This document shows positions 1,456 through 12,029 of a stretch of 64,000 nt of DNA, in pieces (position 1 is the stretch's first letter; each line of letters begins with the position of its first letter). Below the pieces are notes generated by a model that saw nothing but the letters and a program-made list of their open reading frames with translations, did not search any database and had not been told where the DNA came from. The translations under genes were made by a program, and so were the position numbers. The stretch is from Synechococcus sp. JA-2-3B'a(2-13) (GTDB lineage Bacteria > Cyanobacteriota > Cyanobacteriia > Thermostichales > Thermostichaceae). The stretch is from the NCBI RefSeq assembly GCF_000013225.1, contig NC_007776.1:2734501-2798500 (forward strand), read 5' to 3'.

Positions 1456-1710
1456 TTACCAGTCAAAGTGACGGCGAAAGCGGGGATCCCGTCGATCCTT
1501 TTTGCGTCGGTTACAGGTTTTGCACAACGTTTGCAGATTGCTGATGTCGTTGCTGCCCCCTTGGGCAATGGGGATGATGTGATCGATCTGAAGCTGAACC
1601 TCTGGGGGCGACTTTCCGCAACCGCGACAACGGAAGCCGTCTCTTTGGAAAACATACTCCCGCACGGCTGCTGGAATTAGAATCCTTTCGCCGGATTTTC
1701 TTTCTTTCAT
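1456..1710 (-). CDS. Small HNH endonuclease-domain protein
   Basis: This 84-residue protein is essentially one HNH domain. It carries two CxxC zinc-binding pairs (CRGC near residue 25 and CKTC near 63) around the core DHIIPIAQGG with the metal-binding His, followed by NLQTLC. HNH domains of this size act as nicking or double-strand nucleases; the target here cannot be inferred. It is the last gene of a leftward cluster, starting 2 bp after the stop of the KGK-type gene at 1713, so it is probably co-transcribed. One GGATCC site is present (1482). It may be a stand-alone homing-type nuclease that arrived with the cluster or the effector of it; nothing in the sequence decides. Confidence 0.75.
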   Translation of the reverse strand: MKERKSGERILIPAAVREYVFQRDGFRCRGCGKSPPEVQLQIDHIIPIAQGGSNDISNLQTLCKTCNRRKKDRRDPRFRRHFDW

Positions 1711-1712
1711 CG

Positions 1713-2135
1713 TTATTCATCCATACTGCGAAGATCGTCCAGTGGAGACTTTTCATCTAGAGGTTCTAATATCTCTTGGTCGGGTTCTTTTATCAGAAAT
1801 TCAGGATTGTCAGGATAAAAGTCAATCGTAACTTCTACTCTTACTTTTACTCTACCGGTCTGCCAACCGTTAGTTTTAGGAGAAAGAATCAAGCATGGAA
1901 CTCCTTTATCGAAAAAATGAACCTGATCTTCATAGGGAATACCTGTTTCTATCTGTATCTCACGCGAACTCAAGTAACTGTCTAGTCCTCTTCCCATTTG
2001 GTCAAACCTCAGGAAATAAGAATTGATAGAATCGCAAAGCTTGGAAATCATGTAGACTTCCTGCTTATTGTTCTCGTTGATAAAAGTGATAACTCCGTCT
2101 CGCAGTTGGCTAAGATTAATGGATGTTTTTGTCAT
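1713..2135 (-). CDS. Small KGK-type protein 4 with C-terminal SPLDDLR motif
   Basis: I choose the ATG at 2135 because GAGG lies 9 bases upstream and because it avoids overlap with the gene ending at 2146; a longer frame begins at 2183. The 140-residue product has the segment GWQTGRVKVRVEVTIDFYPD, matching the W-x-x-G-[RK]-[VI]-x-[VL]-[RK] pattern of the cyanobacterial KGK family (Pfam KGK), whose function is unknown. It ends SPLDDLR-SMDE. The motif S-x-L-D-D-L-R is shared with the three neighbouring paralogs and the dynamin-like protein. The DNA has no GGATCC site and is AT-richer than flanking genes, which suggests acquisition. No signal peptide or membrane segment is visible. Confidence 0.6.
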   Translation of the reverse strand: MTKTSINLSQLRDGVITFINENNKQEVYMISKLCDSINSYFLRFDQMGRGLDSYLSSREIQIETGIPYEDQVHFFDKGVPCLILSPKTNGWQTGRVKVRVEVTIDFYPDNPEFLIKEPDQEILEPLDEKSPLDDLRSMDE

Positions 2136-2145
2136 CTTATCGACC

Positions 2146-2511
2146 TCAAGACATAGAGACAACTTGAACAGCCCGTAAATCATCCAGTATAGAATCCTCT
2201 AGTTTTCTGGGAGCGCTATCTCCAGAATCTCTATATGGGTCATCAGGAACAAACTCGAGATAAACTTTGACTGATATCTTGCCAGAGATCCACGACTTTC
2301 TGGGCTGTAAGACTCTAGATTTTATTCCATCCACGAGCATTCTAATGTCCGCATAAACCTTTCTTGATTTAAGGTAACCGTTTGTCCGGAAAGTATCTGA
2401 AAGAAGGTAATTAATAATTGCACTATGCAATCTACTTGGAAGGTAGACTTGATCACCAATTCCAACGACAGTTTCCCTATCATCTGACCTAAAAACTATC
2501 GGATCGACCAC
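2146..2511 (-). CDS. Small KGK-type protein 3 with C-terminal SILDDLR motif
   Basis: The 121-residue protein begins MVDPIVFRSDDRETVVGIG and contains SWISGKISVKVYLEFVPDD, the KGK-family core of an aromatic residue, G-K and alternating basic/hydrophobic positions followed by an acidic end. Near its C-terminus is SILDDLR, identical in seven residues to the C-terminus of the dynamin-like GTPase encoded upstream, but with different codons, so the similarity is at protein level. Here eight further residues follow the motif. Function unknown. It lies between two paralogs, 27 bp after the gene ending at 2539 and 10 bp before the next start. The gene contains no GGATCC. Confidence 0.6.
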   Translation of the reverse strand: MVDPIVFRSDDRETVVGIGDQVYLPSRLHSAIINYLLSDTFRTNGYLKSRKVYADIRMLVDGIKSRVLQPRKSWISGKISVKVYLEFVPDDPYRDSGDSAPRKLEDSILDDLRAVQVVSMS

Positions 2512-2538
2512 GGCATTGTCTCCTATTGCTAACAGACT

Positions 2539-2907
2539 TTACTGACTGACATCTCCCCGAATGTCATCCAAAGGCGATCTACTGCTCCCTGATCCCGTTT
2601 CTTCTGGCTCAAACTCAACCACTAGTCTCATCCTAACTCTACCAGCAATCCACGGTGAGCCAGGACGTAAGAGTTTAGCAGGAATTCCTTTCACGTTAGT
2701 TATTCCGTTCAAGTTGCTCCATAGAATCGAGACTCCCTTTTCGCTAAGTTTGCTGGATAAGTAGGATCTGATACTCTCATAAACAATCTCTGAGTACACC
2801 TGAGCAAACTCTTGCGAGTAGATTAGGCGTCCTCCTATATCAATGACAGTATTTTGGAAAATATCTAGCTCAACAAAGCACTCCTGAGATTGATCATTAC
2901 TTGACAC
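2539..2907 (-). CDS. Small KGK-type protein 2 with C-terminal SPLDDIR motif
   Basis: I place the start at the GTG at 2907, with GAGGGGG eight bases upstream. An open frame extends to 3015, but it would overlap the preceding gene by 74 bp, and the GTG start lines up with the start of the paralog at 2511. The 122-residue product contains PGSPWIAGRVRMRLVVEFEP, the KGK-type core, and ends in SPLDDIR-GDVSQ. It is a paralog of its neighbours, with variation in the N-terminal half and conservation at the core and C-terminal tag. No known catalytic motif, signal peptide or transmembrane segment is seen. Confidence 0.6.
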   Translation of the reverse strand: MSSNDQSQECFVELDIFQNTVIDIGGRLIYSQEFAQVYSEIVYESIRSYLSSKLSEKGVSILWSNLNGITNVKGIPAKLLRPGSPWIAGRVRMRLVVEFEPEETGSGSSRSPLDDIRGDVSQ

Positions 2908-2941
2908 TTGCCCAACCCCCTCTATGTCTCTCTGGCTTAGG

Positions 2942-3352
2942 CTAGCTCTCACTTTCGCGAAGGTCATCCAGAGGGGATCCACTGCTGCTCTCTGAGCCTG
3001 TATCCTCTGGCTCAAACTCTACAATGATCCGCAATCTGACTCTGCCTTTTTCCCAATCCTTCTTGCCTGGCACCAAGAGCTGACAAGCAAGTCCCTGCCC
3101 AAACCACTTCGCTTCTTGCAACAATTTTTCTTCTGGCTTGGGAGCAAGAAGGCTACTGGCAATGTTGAGCAAGTCTTCCGGCGGCAGGATCCCTGAGGAT
3201 CTCAAGGCCGCAATGAACAAGCGATGCAGCTCTTCTTTCTTGGTCAAGTCCTCTTGGGCTGCTTTGACCAAGTTGGCAACCTTGAAAGTTTTCTCCCTTA
3301 CAGAGAGGATCCCTTCTGGGTGCTGCTGTAGAGGTATCGATTTGGATCCCAT
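2942..3352 (-). CDS. Small KGK-type protein 1 with C-terminal SPLDDLR motif
   Basis: The 136-residue product is the first of four paralogs downstream of the dynamin-like gene, 47 bp after its stop. It contains PGKKDWEKGRVRLRIIVEFE, the clearest KGK-type core in the set, followed by an acidic and serine-rich linker and SPLDDLR-ESES at the C-terminus. The N-terminal half is predicted mostly helical from its pattern (KVANLVKAAQEDLTKKEEL). Unlike the next two paralogs it holds or abuts four GGATCC sites. The ATG start has only a weak ribosome-binding site, so translation may be coupled to the upstream gene. Function unknown. Confidence 0.6.
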   Translation of the reverse strand: MGSKSIPLQQHPEGILSVREKTFKVANLVKAAQEDLTKKEELHRLFIAALRSSGILPPEDLLNIASSLLAPKPEEKLLQEAKWFGQGLACQLLVPGKKDWEKGRVRLRIIVEFEPEDTGSESSSGSPLDDLRESES

Positions 3353-3399
3353 GACTTTATCTGGATCAAGTGAAAGGCCAAAAACAAAGACAAGCCGCT

Positions 3400-5934
3400 C
3401 TATCTCAAATCATCGAGAATGCTATCCAACTCTGGAAAACTCTCGTCTATGGGTGTAGAACGACCAAGAGCGACTGCTTCGCTTGCATTGCTGTCACCTA
3501 CTTGCTGTTCAGGAAGACTTGCCAAAATCTGAACTGACTCACCAACAGAGGAAGGTTCAGGACGAGTAATCAAGGGCAGCATCTCGCGATTGAGGCCCAA
3601 AGCTTGCAAGCAGAGGTTGATCCCAGAAACAGCTTGGTTGTACTTGTCTATGCTTGCCTCCAGTTCTTTCAGCCGCTGTTGGTTAAGCGCAATTTTCTCT
3701 TCAGCCTCTTTTCTGAGAGTTGCTTCCATGAACTGCTTTGCTTCTGGGTACTTTTGCAAAATCTCATCGGCTACTTGCTTGGCAACCGGCAATAGCTGAG
3801 TTTTTAGAGTATTGTTGGTCTCTTGTCGGAAGCTAGAACGCACTGTCTGGTTAATTTTCGGCTCGAAGTCAAGCTTAAGTAATTGTCGGATTCCAGGCTC
3901 TGCGTCGCGAATAGCAGAGATGTCATAAGATTGGCTGGTTTGCTTTAGGACTTCTCGAAACTGGTAGATCGAGAATGTTCCTTCGTCGTAGAAGCGGGGA
4001 CTTTCTCTGAGGTAGCGGTCGCACTCTTTTCGGGCACCATTGACAAGAGAACTCAAGGTTACCTCCTTAACCAAAAGAAGCTTTTTCTCTAAGTCCCCAT
4101 CGGATCCCAGTAGGCGAAACAACTGCCTGTAGTAGCTCGAGCTGCGAACTTCATCAACAAGGCGACGAAAGAAGTTCTCTACAAGCGTGCTGGCTGATTC
4201 TACCAGGATGTCCTCTAGATGGTTGGACAAATAATAAAAGGCTTCGACCAATACAGCTAAGAATGGAGCTGTGGAGTTGCGAGGACGGATGCGAACGGCT
4301 TGACTGTAAACATTGTCCAACGAAAAAGTATCCAAAAGCTCATCTAGCCTCCGTACCATCCTAGCCTGCAATTTACGGAAATCGTTCTCAAATTCTTTGT
4401 TTTCTCCGTTAATAACTTTATTGACTACTGTCTGGATATGCTCGTCAAACTCTCGGCCAATACTGGCTAGCTGCTGATTGATCAGCGTCAGCTCATAGGA
4501 AATCATGCTGTCAATCTCTTTGGGCTGGCTATCAATGTCTCGGTAGAGATCTAGATAGGACTTCCTCATCTCGATGCAGAGAGGTTGCAAATCATCGGCC
4601 AGCGCGGAAAATAGCTGTGGCCGCTTTTCTTCCGTTAAATAACGAGTGATCCCAGCCCGAAAGTCTTCAATACCGCTATCTTTAATCATATACTCAATCA
4701 AAGGTTTTCCCCACTCCCTCAGAATCCGAACGTAGTTATTTATGGGTGTGTCGTACCCATGTACAGAAGGGCGGAACGGGGATCCAACCAACCTACCTGA
4801 CGTGCAGTACTTATTAAACTCGCTGACAAACTGGGGCGTTTCTTCCTCACCACCCAATTCTTTGATGCTTTCTGAAAAGATTGTATCCAGTCCAAATCGA
4901 TCCTCGGGGGTAGTTGCCTTGATCTGGGAACCATAGAAGCCGAGAAGGCCGCTTGTCTTAAATACGCGGAGTTGACGAAACTGCTGGTCGATAATGTTTT
5001 CTAGTCTATGCTTTAGTTGTGCGTTGTACCAAGTCTCATCAATCCGGTTAAACACATAGAAGACGCGATCCCTGATGCTGTCATTACCTTGAATGTGTTC
5101 AATAAGTTCTGTCTCTTCCTTGGTCAGCTCACCCGTTGCAGCACACTTGAGAACGCAAACAACTGCGGACGTATCCGGATCGGCAATTTTTCGATAAGTA
5201 CGCTCTGCATCCGCTTTGACTGGAGCATCGATCCCAGGAGTATCGACAATAACGTTTCCATCTTCCAGTAAGGGGTGATGGCAGTAGTATTCGACTTTTC
5301 GCAAAACTGCGCTATTGGCACCGCGCCGGGCAAAACCCGCAGCTTCCCTTAGGTTGCCGAAGTTGAGCTGCTCCATCGAGAAGACTTTGTTCTCGGTAGG
5401 GTGAATTTTGTCCCGGTTCTGCTGGAAACCTGTAATCAACAAGCGGAGGGCATCCGCCTGCTTTGCCCGCTCTGACTTGCTTTTACCTCCCTCCTGCTGA
5501 ATAATAGCCTCAGCACGCTCCTTCAGGGGATTCAGTGCAGTGTCTTCCAGCCTGCTGAGTGACGGAGCCAAGTTTAGGAAAGCGCAGAAGGCGGTCATCT
5601 GTTCTTGCACTTCCTGCTCGCTAAGAAAAGTGAGCACTACCCTCTCCGCATTTGGCTCTGCGTAGGCGATGTAGCACTCTGTCCCTGTGGCGTGCCCTTC
5701 GGCGCTGTAGAGAAGCTCTCTTTCTAAGAGGGCATTGATTAGCATAGACTTGCCAGCACTGAAAGCACCGGCAAAGACAATCTCGAAGGTTGGAGAAATA
5801 GCTTTGCTGAGGGAAGCTTGAATCCGAGTGGTATCTTGCTTGCCTGAAAAAGTGGAATCCTGATGCCAGAGTTGCAGGATAGCTTCAACCTGCTCTTTCA
5901 AGTTCTCACACTGAGGCAGGAGCTTTACAGACAT
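3400..5934 (-). CDS. Dynamin-like GTPase with C-terminal SILDDLR motif
   Basis: The 844-residue protein has an N-terminal dynamin-type GTPase domain. The P-loop GAFSAGKS is at about residues 56-63, a G2-type threonine follows in HATGTE, G3 DTPGID is near 230 and G4 NRID near 295. Long helical segments follow, with a hydrophobic stretch around residues 550-570 (FLAVLVEAFYYLSN) that could be a membrane-contacting paddle. Bacterial dynamin-like proteins bind and remodel membranes, and some protect against phage or membrane damage. The last residues are ELDSILDDLR, the motif also found near the C-termini of the four small proteins encoded immediately downstream on the same strand. Only two GGATCC sites occur in 2.5 kb. 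It probably heads a leftward operon. The GTPase call is firm; the role is not known. Confidence 0.8.
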   Translation of the reverse strand: MSVKLLPQCENLKEQVEAILQLWHQDSTFSGKQDTTRIQASLSKAISPTFEIVFAGAFSAGKSMLINALLERELLYSAEGHATGTECYIAYAEPNAERVVLTFLSEQEVQEQMTAFCAFLNLAPSLSRLEDTALNPLKERAEAIIQQEGGKSKSERAKQADALRLLITGFQQNRDKIHPTENKVFSMEQLNFGNLREAAGFARRGANSAVLRKVEYYCHHPLLEDGNVIVDTPGIDAPVKADAERTYRKIADPDTSAVVCVLKCAATGELTKEETELIEHIQGNDSIRDRVFYVFNRIDETWYNAQLKHRLENIIDQQFRQLRVFKTSGLLGFYGSQIKATTPEDRFGLDTIFSESIKELGGEEETPQFVSEFNKYCTSGRLVGSPFRPSVHGYDTPINNYVRILREWGKPLIEYMIKDSGIEDFRAGITRYLTEEKRPQLFSALADDLQPLCIEMRKSYLDLYRDIDSQPKEIDSMISYELTLINQQLASIGREFDEHIQTVVNKVINGENKEFENDFRKLQARMVRRLDELLDTFSLDNVYSQAVRIRPRNSTAPFLAVLVEAFYYLSNHLEDILVESASTLVENFFRRLVDEVRSSSYYRQLFRLLGSDGDLEKKLLLVKEVTLSSLVNGARKECDRYLRESPRFYDEGTFSIYQFREVLKQTSQSYDISAIRDAEPGIRQLLKLDFEPKINQTVRSSFRQETNNTLKTQLLPVAKQVADEILQKYPEAKQFMEATLRKEAEEKIALNQQRLKELEASIDKYNQAVSGINLCLQALGLNREMLPLITRPEPSSVGESVQILASLPEQQVGDSNASEAVALGRSTPIDESFPELDSILDDLR

Positions 5935-6138: not shown

Positions 6139-6211
<73 letters not shown>

Positions 6212-10740: not shown

Positions 10741-12029
10741 GTAAACTACCCGACACCCGCGCTATGCGCAGGGTGCGGGCTTTATCCCAATCCCTAGCGG
10801 CCCCAGAGGACAGCTAAGTTTCGGAATTTCAGGCGAGTTTACAGTCGCCCCAAGGAGAGAGATTACTTGAGCAGCGTTATGGTCAGCATCCCCTTCCCAC
10901 CCGCAGTGTCCACACTTGAACGACTTACCATTGCGGTAGGACTTACCCCGCTCAGGGTGGATGTGCAGGCATTTGTGGCAGGTCTGACTGGTATAGGCAG
11001 GCGGAACCAGTACCACAGGCACCCCAGCAATGGCAGCCTTGTAGGCTACAAACATCCTGAGCTGGTAGAACGCCCAGTTGTTAGTCCTGCGCCGCTCAGC
11101 CTTACTTCGAGACTTCTGATTCAGGCAATCTCTGATGCCTGTCAAGTCTTCAAAAGCCAGTGCCGCACCAATAGCCTGGGCATCCCTGACCAAGGTTTTG
11201 CTGATGTTATGGTTCAGCCATGTCTGGTAGCGCCGTTCTCTCCCAGAGAGCCTTCTCAGCAGTCTCCTAGAGCTGCGAGTGCGTTTGGATTGAACCTTGG
11301 CGCGTACACGGCTGAACCGGTCACGGACGGCCTGGATGTGCTCTCCACTCCAAGAGCGTCCGTTGCTAGCGGTGGCGATATCCCGCCTGCCCAAGTCAAC
11401 TCCGATTACCTTTGGAGTTTTGCCAGTCGGGGGAGTATCCAGCTCAACAGCAATGTTGATGTAGTAGTCCCCTTGCTTGGTCTTGGACAGAGTAGCGCTG
11501 GTGGGCGTTTGCCCCCGCAGGAGCGCTATCTGGTAGCCACCGATCTTGAGTTTGAGCCAGACTCGCCCGCTCAACAGAGTCACACCAACAGTCTGTTCAG
11601 ACTCTCGGTACCTAAAAGTACGCGCGTCCAAAGTCAGACTGGTGGGGCGAAACTTGTGGACTTGCTTCACCGCCTTGGCATTGCTAATCACCCGACGGAG
11701 CGCCTGACAGACGTGGTTGGCTTTCAGCCCCGTTGCTGCCCTTACCGGCCGATAGACCAAGTGGTGCAGCTTAGCGGTGTTCCAGCAGTTCTTTTGTTTG
11801 GCGGTATCGAGAATCTGGTTGCAAGCATTCGCAAAGCCCTGCAAAGTGCGGTCAATTTCTTGACGCAACTCTTGTGGGACTATCAGCTTGCAACGTACGG
11901 ATATAGTCTGGCTCATGGGCTTATTGTAGTTTATCCAGACTTTTGACCAGCAAACCTATATGGAGGAGGGCTTTCCTCCCGACACCACGCCTGCGGCTAT
12001 GGTGCGGGCCTCCAGCCCGAAAATTTGGT
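10741..12029 (-). mobile_element. IS200/IS605-type element, tnpB only (family A, copy 1)
   Basis: The ends are defined by alignment to copy 2 at 55351-56639, where similarity starts and stops abruptly. The right end (low coordinates) is GGGTAGTTTAC read on the minus strand, preceded by an imperfect hairpin; the left end reads TCACCAAATTTTCGGGC and contains a second hairpin. There is no tnpA, so mobility would need a transposase in trans. No GGATCC occurs inside. Apart from a 120-bp block at 11491-11612 the copies differ by about 2 percent. Confidence 0.8.
10762..11916 (-). CDS. tnpB: TnpB, RNA-guided nuclease-type protein of IS605 family (copy 1)
   Basis: The 384-residue protein has the split RuvC-like active site: Asp174 in IGVDLGRRDI, Glu256 in LAFEDLTG and an Asp in DADHNAA (about 345). 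A zinc finger is formed by Cys313, Cys316, Cys335 and Cys338. All key residues are intact. TnpB proteins are programmable DNA nucleases guided by a right-end RNA and are ancestors of Cas12. Here the stop codon sits in the loop of the right-end hairpin, so coding and RNA scaffold overlap. An antisense open frame of similar length is a composition shadow. The protein differs from copy 2 at only a handful of residues, mostly between residues 100 and 140. Confidence 0.9.
   Translation of the reverse strand: MSQTISVRCKLIVPQELRQEIDRTLQGFANACNQILDTAKQKNCWNTAKLHHLVYRPVRAATGLKANHVCQALRRVISNAKAVKQVHKFRPTSLTLDARTFRYRESEQTVGVTLLSGRVWLKLKIGGYQIALLRGQTPTSATLSKTKQGDYYINIAVELDTPPTGKTPKVIGVDLGRRDIATASNGRSWSGEHIQAVRDRFSRVRAKVQSKRTRSSRRLLRRLSGRERRYQTWLNHNISKTLVRDAQAIGAALAFEDLTGIRDCLNQKSRSKAERRRTNNWAFYQLRMFVAYKAAIAGVPVVLVPPAYTSQTCHKCLHIHPERGKSYRNGKSFKCGHCGWEGDADHNAAQVISLLGATVNSPEIPKLSCPLGPLGIGIKPAPCA

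What the first reader, a model, noticed from the sequence alone, without database searches (positions are those of the whole stretch)
1456..5934. Dynamin-like GTPase and four small KGK-type proteins share a C-terminal S-[PI]-L-D-D-[LI]-R tag
Seen directly: the dynamin-like protein ends LDSILDDLR, and the four small proteins end in SPLDDLR-ESES, SPLDDIR-GDVSQ, SILDDLR-AVQVVSMS and SPLDDLR-SMDE. The codons differ (for example in the GTPase and the protein at 2146-2511), so this is protein-level conservation. The small proteins share a KGK-type core (W-x-x-G-[KR]-[VI]) and are otherwise variable; the GTPase shares nothing else with them. The genes are adjacent, leftward and closely spaced, with an HNH gene at the end. 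Known: KGK is a cyanobacterial family of unknown function, and some bacterial dynamins act in membrane protection or phage defence. Inferred: the motif is a common docking, targeting or processing signal of a membrane-acting system in which several KGK variants address one GTPase, possibly with a nuclease arm.
Basis: partly seen in the sequence, partly recalled or inferred. Interest (0 to 1): 0.88.

Follow-up and report, generated by a model that had tools for sequence, protein, structure and literature searches.

The report
Shared tail tag beside cyanobacterial dynamin
In cyanobacteria a membrane-working dynamin-like protein is encoded next to small KGK proteins that mostly end in the same seven-residue tag, and often next to a small HNH protein; in two distant lineages the dynamin itself carries the tag, which suggests a plug-in code whose function is still unproven.

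Summary
The GTPase is an orthologue of SynDLP (slr0869; PDB 7zw6) and the four small proteins are KGK (PF08872). That such dynamins have a KGK gene downstream is published ("KGK clade", 2018). Three things appear new. (1) The tag, S-P-L-D-[DE]-[IL]-R on a variable linker, recurs on KGK proteins across the phylum: 111 of 162 dynamin-linked KGKs carry a strict form, against 0.3 in shuffled tails. A DNA pattern for it gives 85 hits in 50 dynamin-bearing genomes (8 reversed), 74 of them in KGK genes; in 69 KGK genomes without this dynamin it gives 15 (10 reversed), 2 in KGKs. (2) The dynamin itself bears the tag in two distant lineages: the window's family (5 of 112 full-length dynamins) and Okeania with a related genus. 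(3) The HNH gene is not incidental: an ~81-residue HNH was found in 53 of 121 dynamin loci, always on the dynamin's strand, and 96 of 121 dynamin genomes hold it against 18 of 267 others. I read this as a docking motif in a dynamin-KGK(n)-HNH operon, the dynamin being the likeliest receptor. Docking is unproven: AlphaFold showed no ordered tag, and the phylogeny-corrected test had no power.

The parts
3400..5934 (-). SynDLP-type dynamin-like GTPase (844 aa), 'KGK clade'
   Evidence: Dynamin_N in Pfam; match to Slr0869, PDB 7zw6, 1029 bits over residues 4-798
3403..3423 (-). C-terminal tag SILDDLR of the GTPase, at the extreme C-terminus
   Evidence: ILDDLR is kept in all 5 full-length DLPs of this family that were read, although the preceding linker looks unalignable between genera (by eye)
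2942..3352 (-). KGK protein 1 (136 aa)
   Evidence: PF08872, 72.5 bits; AlphaFold2 mean pLDDT 81.8
2957..2977 (-). tag SPLDDLR of KGK1
   Evidence: predicted helix at residues 127-134, block pLDDT 62-68
2539..3015 (-). KGK protein 2 (start uncertain; the listed TTG start overlaps KGK1)
   Evidence: PF08872, 48.2 bits
2557..2577 (-). tag SPLDDIR of KGK2
2146..2511 (-). KGK protein 3 (121 aa)
   Evidence: PF08872, 46.4 bits
2173..2193 (-). tag SILDDLR of KGK3
1713..2183 (-). KGK protein 4 (start uncertain)
   Evidence: PF08872, 66 bits
1728..1748 (-). tag SPLDDLR of KGK4
1456..1710 (-). small HNH protein (84 aa), last gene of the operon
   Evidence: HNH_5 73 bits, HNH 61.9 bits; found in 53 of 121 DLP loci, all on the DLP's strand; co-occurrence in 388 genomes

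Best explanation
The locus is one operon: a SynDLP-type dynamin, then a variable array of KGK proteins, then a small HNH protein. Each tagged KGK protein is a small folded domain followed by a variable linker and a short helix-prone motif, S-P-L-D-[DE]-[IL]-R, near the C-terminus. The motif works as a plug, as the C-terminal tips of SSB or FtsZ do (analogy recalled). The most likely socket is the dynamin, so that different KGK domains can be coupled to one GTPase. Where the dynamin ends in the same plug (the window's family; Okeania and a related genus), the plug would occupy the socket in cis or on the neighbouring subunit of the oligomer and compete with KGK. The HNH protein belongs to the same system and is probably its nucleic-acid arm. 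Shown: gene order, conservation, near-restriction of the tag to KGK and this dynamin, co-occurrence. Inferred: binding, the receptor, competition, the nuclease role.
For: Tag in strict form on 111 of 162 DLP-linked KGKs (29 more relaxed, 22 without) and on 22 of 32 unlinked KGKs in DLP+ genomes (10 without); shuffled tails give 0.3 and 0.11 strict, 3.83 and 1.1 relaxed. The strict motif ends 0-13 residues from the C-terminus in 136 of 138 KGK ORFs that hold it. Of 20,085 closed stop-to-stop ORFs in 194 loci 125 hold the tag in their last 45 residues: 119 KGK by the core profile, 1 KGK by the earlier profile, 1 short fragment beside a KGK and 4 DLPs. DNA pattern for SPLD[DE]xR: 85 hits against 8 reversed in 50 DLP+ genomes, 38 of which have a hit; 74 of the 85 lie in KGK ORFs (71, 3). 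In 69 KGK+/DLP- genomes 15 against 10, 2 in KGKs and 1 in an 11-residue ORF beside one. DLP itself tagged in 5 of 112 full-length DLPs, all of family f1, and in Okeania and a related genus, with synonymous changes inside the tag. G029 has neither DLP nor KGK; G079 has a truncated DLP and no KGK. G356, tagged but DLP-less, keeps a 19-residue DLP match upstream of its truncated KGK. HNH.
Against: AlphaFold2 of a DLP-KGK1 read-through chain left the DLP tail (793-867, tag included) below pLDDT 50, and the KGK tag helix at about 53-57: no sign of docking. On the KGK tree only 3 independent pairs on supported branches differ in DLP presence, so the tag-DLP link is not separated from descent; by eye the untagged KGKs of DLP- genomes largely look like one subfamily. 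G338 (99% complete) has a KGK with LDEIR 17 residues from its end and no DLP found; G259 and G290 (85% and 82% complete) have tagged KGKs and no DLP found. 22 of 162 DLP-linked KGKs have no tag even in relaxed form. In 44 of 121 DLP loci no KGK was counted in the stretch fetched, some of it cut by contig ends, so the DLP may do without. 12 of 50 DLP+ genomes have no SPLD[DE]xR pattern hit.
Confidence: 0.48

Rival explanations
1. The socket is the KGK domain, not the dynamin. Tags link KGK proteins head to tail, and a dynamin that gains the tag is recruited directly into the KGK assembly.
For: The tag is mostly on KGK, and on the dynamin only in a few lineages. KGKs occur in arrays of up to 7 per locus.
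Against: KGK domains persist without the tag in genomes that lack the dynamin (37 of 44 KGKs), as expected if the socket were the dynamin. The model of KGK1 alone gives the tag helix only pLDDT 62-68.
Confidence: 0.22
2. The tag is read by a third protein, for example a protease adaptor, chaperone or membrane anchor, which acts on KGK and, in some lineages, on the dynamin.
For: Its C-terminal position on a linker would suit a degradation or targeting signal (inference; no call tests it).
Against: A signal read by a general host factor should appear on unrelated proteins too. In 50 DLP+ genomes 74 of 85 pattern hits are in KGK ORFs, 1 more is a weak KGK match and 4 are short fragments that may be KGK relics; DLP-less genomes show little excess over the reversed pattern (15 against 10).
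Confidence: 0.17
3. The dynamin tag is a by-product of recombination with the 3' end of a neighbouring KGK gene and has no function on the dynamin.
For: Okeania: the DLP ends EEVSPLDDLRREMNLNS and three of its four KGKs end EVSPLDDLRQKFNQENQ, so the stretch may come from a KGK gene.
Against: Tag codons differ synonymously among DLPs while the linker in the window's family looks unalignable between genera (by eye); the tag DNA of DLP and KGKs in Okeania agrees at only 16-17 of 21 bases, about as KGKs agree with each other (17-18). Against constraint: one member reads K for R (L431), one ends before the tag (L432) and one is a broken gene (L434).
Confidence: 0.1
4. Chance similarity of short C-termini.
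For: The motif is short; the looser pattern LD[DE]xR is not enriched in the window's whole genome (35 against 44 reversed).
Against: as above.
Confidence: 0.01

Closest known systems
SynDLP (Slr0869) and the 'KGK clade' of cyanobacterial bacterial dynamin-like proteins
   Same: Homologous over residues 4-798; KGK gene downstream, as published (PMC5827413, PMC10104851; passages read). A cysteine is kept at SynDLP C8 and at the INxC stretch near its C777 (alignment; C777 is named, C8 as its partner is recalled).
   Different: C-terminal linker and tag on the dynamin; the KGK tag, multi-copy arrays and HNH gene are not mentioned in the passages that I read, and neither main text holds the word HNH.
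KGK family PF08872
   Same: All four proteins score above the Pfam cut-off, and the model runs through the tag.
   Different: The 2018 paper calls its function enigmatic (passage); no PDB match for the AlphaFold model.
C-terminal hub peptides such as SSB-Ct or the FtsZ C-terminal peptide (recalled)
   Same: Conserved short motif on a variable linker at the C-terminus.
   Different: Different motif; here it is spread over paralogous proteins and, in two lineages, their putative receptor. No binding data.
LeoABC dynamin systems and Septu (PtuB HNH) in PADLOC
   Same: A dynamin GTPase; an HNH protein.
   Different: The best stretch of the LeoA match is residues 33-71 (46.7 bits in all); PtuB matches are about 21 bits or less, over the HNH; the four KGK proteins matched no PADLOC family at E 0.01.

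Membership tests
SynDLP / KGK-clade cyanobacterial DLP | Dynamin GTPase domain with P-loop | tested here: met
   PF00350 58 bits, residues 52-286; GAFSAGKSMLINALL present in the ORF
SynDLP / KGK-clade cyanobacterial DLP | Homology to Slr0869 over the folded length | tested here: met
   1029 bits, residues 4-798 on 3-799
SynDLP / KGK-clade cyanobacterial DLP | KGK gene downstream | tested here: met
   Four KGK ORFs
SynDLP / KGK-clade cyanobacterial DLP | Oligomerisation, GTP hydrolysis, binding of acidic lipids | not testable with these tools
   Needs biochemistry
KGK (PF08872) | Score above curated cut-off | tested here: met
   46.4-72.5 bits against 25.6
HNH nuclease (HNH, HNH_5) | Score above curated cut-offs; HNH-type residues and four cysteines | tested here: met
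   73 and 61.9 bits; invariant C28, C31, D43, H44, N58, C63, C66, N67 in 57 rows, which were chosen by an HNH pattern that fixes most of these
HNH nuclease (HNH, HNH_5) | DNA cleavage | not testable with these tools
   Needs an assay
LeoABC | LeoA/LeoBC match over most of the protein, with the partner genes | tested here: not met
   Best stretch of the LeoA match is residues 33-71, of LeoBC 45-244; none of the other five proteins matched a Leo family
Septu | PtuA ATPase with PtuB HNH | tested here: not met
   Weak HNH match of an 84-aa protein to 206-227-position PtuB models; no PtuA match among the six proteins

The most novel reading that the evidence does not exclude
A membrane-to-DNA response system: fast-diverging KGK sensor proteins plug, through one C-terminal code, into a dynamin-like GTPase at the membrane and so control a dedicated HNH nuclease, as an anti-phage or envelope-damage response; dynamins that carry the same plug have a built-in brake or self-assembly switch.
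Probability: 0.22. Interest if true: 0.88.

Novelty: new variant of a known kind. Interest (0 to 1): 0.62.

Why it matters
KGK is a cyanobacterial family whose function is called enigmatic in print, and SynDLP has a cryo-EM structure while its in vivo role is still open in the passages I read. A conserved tag shared by KGK and, in places, by the dynamin gives a testable hypothesis for how they meet, and the HNH gene is an unexpected third component. If the tag binds the dynamin, adaptor peptides would address a bacterial dynamin, and two unknowns would become one experiment.

Tried and rejected
Chance was rejected by permuted motifs, shuffled tails and the reversed DNA pattern in DLP+ genomes. 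In the window's own genome the looser pattern LD[DE]xR is not enriched overall (35 hits against 44 reversed); 5 of the 35 lie in this locus. Of the other 30, six short ORFs (28-107 residues) have it within 20 residues of their end, one of 76 residues ending NSLDDFR (L226); I took none for a relative, by eye only.

AlphaFold2 as a docking test: KGK1 alone folds (pLDDT 81.8) with the tag as a loosely predicted helix; a DLP-KGK1 read-through chain gave a folded DLP and no ordered tag. Inconclusive: the tool reports no contacts, and the KGK part rested on 13 rows. A first mixed alignment gave KGK rows no credible placement and was not used.

KGK fold: no PDB match by Foldseek (best E 1.6) or VIA-align (0 of 298 with Z of 2 or more). 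PDB sequence search with KGK1: no credible match.

Phylogeny-corrected test of tag against DLP: too few supported independent pairs.

Known defence families: only partial or weak matches. NCBIfam: no match over a cut-off.

Caveats on counts. The first KGK profile may have held seeds read on the wrong strand; rebuilt it from 117 core segments, and the counts come from that. Alignment A1 held only KGKs that passed a loose tag filter (75 of 131 tagged candidates, two then dropped, plus the window's four), so its invariant L and R are partly by selection. KGKs from DLP- genomes: 44 of the 85 places listed were read, from 39 of the 69 genomes. The 50 genomes were chosen by me from the DLP+ ones and include near-identical strains. 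The HNH profile was built mostly from DLP loci, which favours those lineages; the locus scan used a fixed motif within the stretch fetched. Of 14 read-through rows prepared one (L171) was left out of A4.
Full report
What is there. The window lies in a single-contig 3.05 Mb cyanobacterial genome; from its exact length I recall Synechococcus sp. JA-2-3B'a(2-13), and G068, whose contig is 2,932,766 bases, would then be JA-3-3Ab (recalled, no call names them). Six leftward ORFs follow one another: dynamin-like GTPase, four KGK proteins, HNH protein. The GTPase is an orthologue of SynDLP/Slr0869, solved by cryo-EM (PMC10104851). These four KGKs are the only matches to the family in the genome at E 10. 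A tRNA-Phe lies at 6139-6211, just upstream of the GTPase gene.

What is already in print. PMC5827413 (passages read) sorts cyanobacterial dynamin-like proteins into clades and says that in the first, typically, a KGK protein is encoded downstream; PMC10104851 (passages read) places SynDLP in this clade. I searched for 'KGK domain', 'KGK family', 'PF08872', 'SynDLP', 'slr0869', the tag sequences, dynamin-like + HNH + cyanobacteri, and bacterial dynamin + phage + defence + cyanobacteri. The tag search and the HNH search listed no paper. Of the papers the others listed I read passages of four (PMC5827413, PMC10104851, PMC3141437, PMC9950537) and none of these passages mentions the tag or an HNH partner; the rest I saw only as listings. 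Subscription papers and supplements were not searched.

The tag on KGK. I searched 388 genomes of the class: KGK in 164, this dynamin in 121. I fetched 120 dynamin regions beside the window, and part of the KGKs found away from dynamins. With a KGK profile cut to the core, the strict tag LD[DEN][ILFMV][RK] is on 111 of 162 dynamin-linked KGKs, with 29 more in a relaxed form and 22 without; on 22 of 32 unlinked KGKs in dynamin-bearing genomes, 10 without; and on 4 of 44 in genomes without this dynamin, with 3 relaxed and 37 without. Shuffled tails give 0.3, 0.11 and 0.08 strict and 3.83, 1.1 and 2.17 relaxed hits, so the 3 relaxed ones in the last group are no excess. By genome 68 of 76 (dynamin-linked KGKs) against 7 of 39 (no dynamin) have any tagged KGK, strict or relaxed (Fisher 2e-14, uncorrected for descent). 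The consensus is S-P-L-D-[DE]-[ILF]-R-[QRK]; in 125 of 138 KGK ORFs with the strict motif it ends 3-12 residues from the C-terminus. The linker before it varies in length and sequence (by eye).

Is it specific? A DNA pattern for SPLD[DE]xR found 85 hits in 50 dynamin-bearing genomes (38 of them with a hit) against 8 for the reversed pattern. 73 of the 85 lie in loci I already held, 71 of these in KGK ORFs, one in a 17-residue and one in a 55-residue ORF beside KGK genes or the dynamin. I fetched and read the other 12: three are further KGKs, one is a weak KGK match (E 0.015), two are in a 12- and a 57-residue ORF that may be KGK relics, one is internal to a 738-residue ORF, and five sit in short, doubtful ORFs. 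In 69 KGK genomes without the dynamin the same pattern gives 15 hits against 10 reversed; two are in KGKs and one in an 11-residue ORF beside one. No such dynamin was found in those 69 beyond one 50-residue match in G295. Of the tagged exceptions, G356 keeps a 19-residue dynamin match upstream of a truncated KGK; G290, G259 and G329 (relaxed tag) are incomplete and their KGKs lie on contigs of 3.2-5.8 kb without a dynamin; G338 is 99% complete and remains unexplained. The relaxed hits in G134 and G034 look like chance.

The tag on the dynamin. Of 112 full-length dynamins only 5 have it, all in the window's family f1. In these the last six residues ILDDLR are identical, with synonymous changes, although the linker before them looks unalignable between genera. 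A scan of 46 loci of named genomes found it in four: two Okeania genomes and two that are members of f1. A search of the family that should hold Okeania showed it in 5 of the 30 loci read, from two genera, one of them with K for R, while the other genera read there (Microcoleus- and Planktothrix-like by their tails) lack it; two further members of the tagged genera end before it or are broken. Two origins on the dynamin are the simplest reading; I did not test this on a tree. In Okeania the tail also shares the residues EV before the tag with three of its four KGKs, which hints at recombination with a KGK gene; the DNA has since diverged.

The HNH gene. A motif scan found an HNH of about 81 residues in 53 of 121 dynamin loci: 53 on the dynamin's strand, 52 downstream, and after every KGK in all 44 of these loci that have KGKs. 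The one not downstream, G079, is a dynamin cut after residue 220 and running in frame into the HNH. A profile of it hits 114 of 388 genomes at E 1e-20, 96 of them among the 121 with the dynamin, 18 among the other 267; at genus level 51 both, 9 HNH only, 14 dynamin only, 86 neither, tabulated by me and tested (uncorrected for descent). The HNH is sometimes far from the dynamin in the same genome, as in G190, G333 and G386, which argues for shared function rather than mere proximity. In a blastp of ORFs of at least 110 residues from 20 of the 121 loci against all, nothing but dynamin, KGK, HNH and ORFs antisense to the dynamin recurred in more than 11 loci; an ABC-type ATPase reached 11.

Evolution in the window's genus. 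Between the window and G004 the dynamin is 97.9% identical (dN/dS 0.05), KGK1 95.5%, KGK4 about 82%, KGK3 68.6% and HNH 89.3%; the tags of these three KGKs are unchanged in protein. In G068 a deletion of 481 bases joins KGK2 to KGK3. G029 lacks dynamin and KGK, and 1.5 kb beside its copy of the flanking gene shows no match to dynamin, KGK1, KGK4 or HNH. The KGK array is thus the variable part, the dynamin and the tag the constant ones.

Mechanism. The architecture (folded domain, variable linker, short motif predicted as a helix) is that of a docking peptide. The dynamin is the best candidate receptor because the tag tracks it across genomes, and because a receptor that copies its ligand's peptide is a familiar form of self-regulation (recalled). 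This is inference. AlphaFold did not show docking, the KGK tree is too poorly resolved to separate tag-dynamin association from descent, and KGK-KGK docking or a third partner remain open. A defence role would fit the patchy distribution, fast KGK turnover and HNH partner, but none of the six proteins is a convincing member of a PADLOC family, and SynDLP has been proposed to serve thylakoid dynamics and repair.

Verdict. The pairing of dynamin and KGK is known. The tag code, its appearance on the dynamin in two lineages and the conserved HNH partner appear undescribed in the library searched. Function remains to be tested.

Noticed in passing
L180:3076-3912 and L462 (G079): The dynamin's first 220 residues run in frame into the HNH protein; the rest of the dynamin and the KGK genes are gone. 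Probably a deletion relic.
   Followed up: partly
window 2162-2642 against L458/L065 (G068): A near-identical strain lacks these 481 bases, which joins KGK2 to the end of KGK3; the stretch holds the tags of both, and the joined ORF has none.
   Followed up: partly
L082:4628-6133, L098:2947-4647, L100:7711-9414, L103:2261-3949: Proteins of about 500-567 residues with several KGK-like repeats near the operon; the N-terminal part looks MazG-like to the eye (recalled, not tested).
   Followed up: no
L253:1416-2927, L268:1378-2718, L283:624-2363: Unlinked, untagged KGK domains followed by very long acidic tails (ORFs of 446-579 residues).
   Followed up: no
L193-L213, L270-L281: Many KGKs of dynamin-less genomes share another kind of C-terminus, rich in R, D and E and often ending in DEY, DNY or similar (by eye).
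   Followed up: partly
L363 (G362) and L385/L394 (G176): What looks like the same non-KGK protein in two genomes holds SPLDDIR internally, 76 residues from its end.
   Followed up: no
L323: A contig binned as Chloroflexaceae MAG SM1_2_4 carries the dynamin (split in two ORFs) and two tagged KGKs; transfer or mis-binning.
   Followed up: no
window 1713-2138 against L065: KGK4 between the window and G068 shows dN 0.034 and dS 0.012; few changes and approximate gene limits, so only a hint of positive selection.
   Followed up: no
window 10762-11916 (-): ORF that looks like a TnpB/OrfB transposase-associated protein by eye.
   Followed up: no
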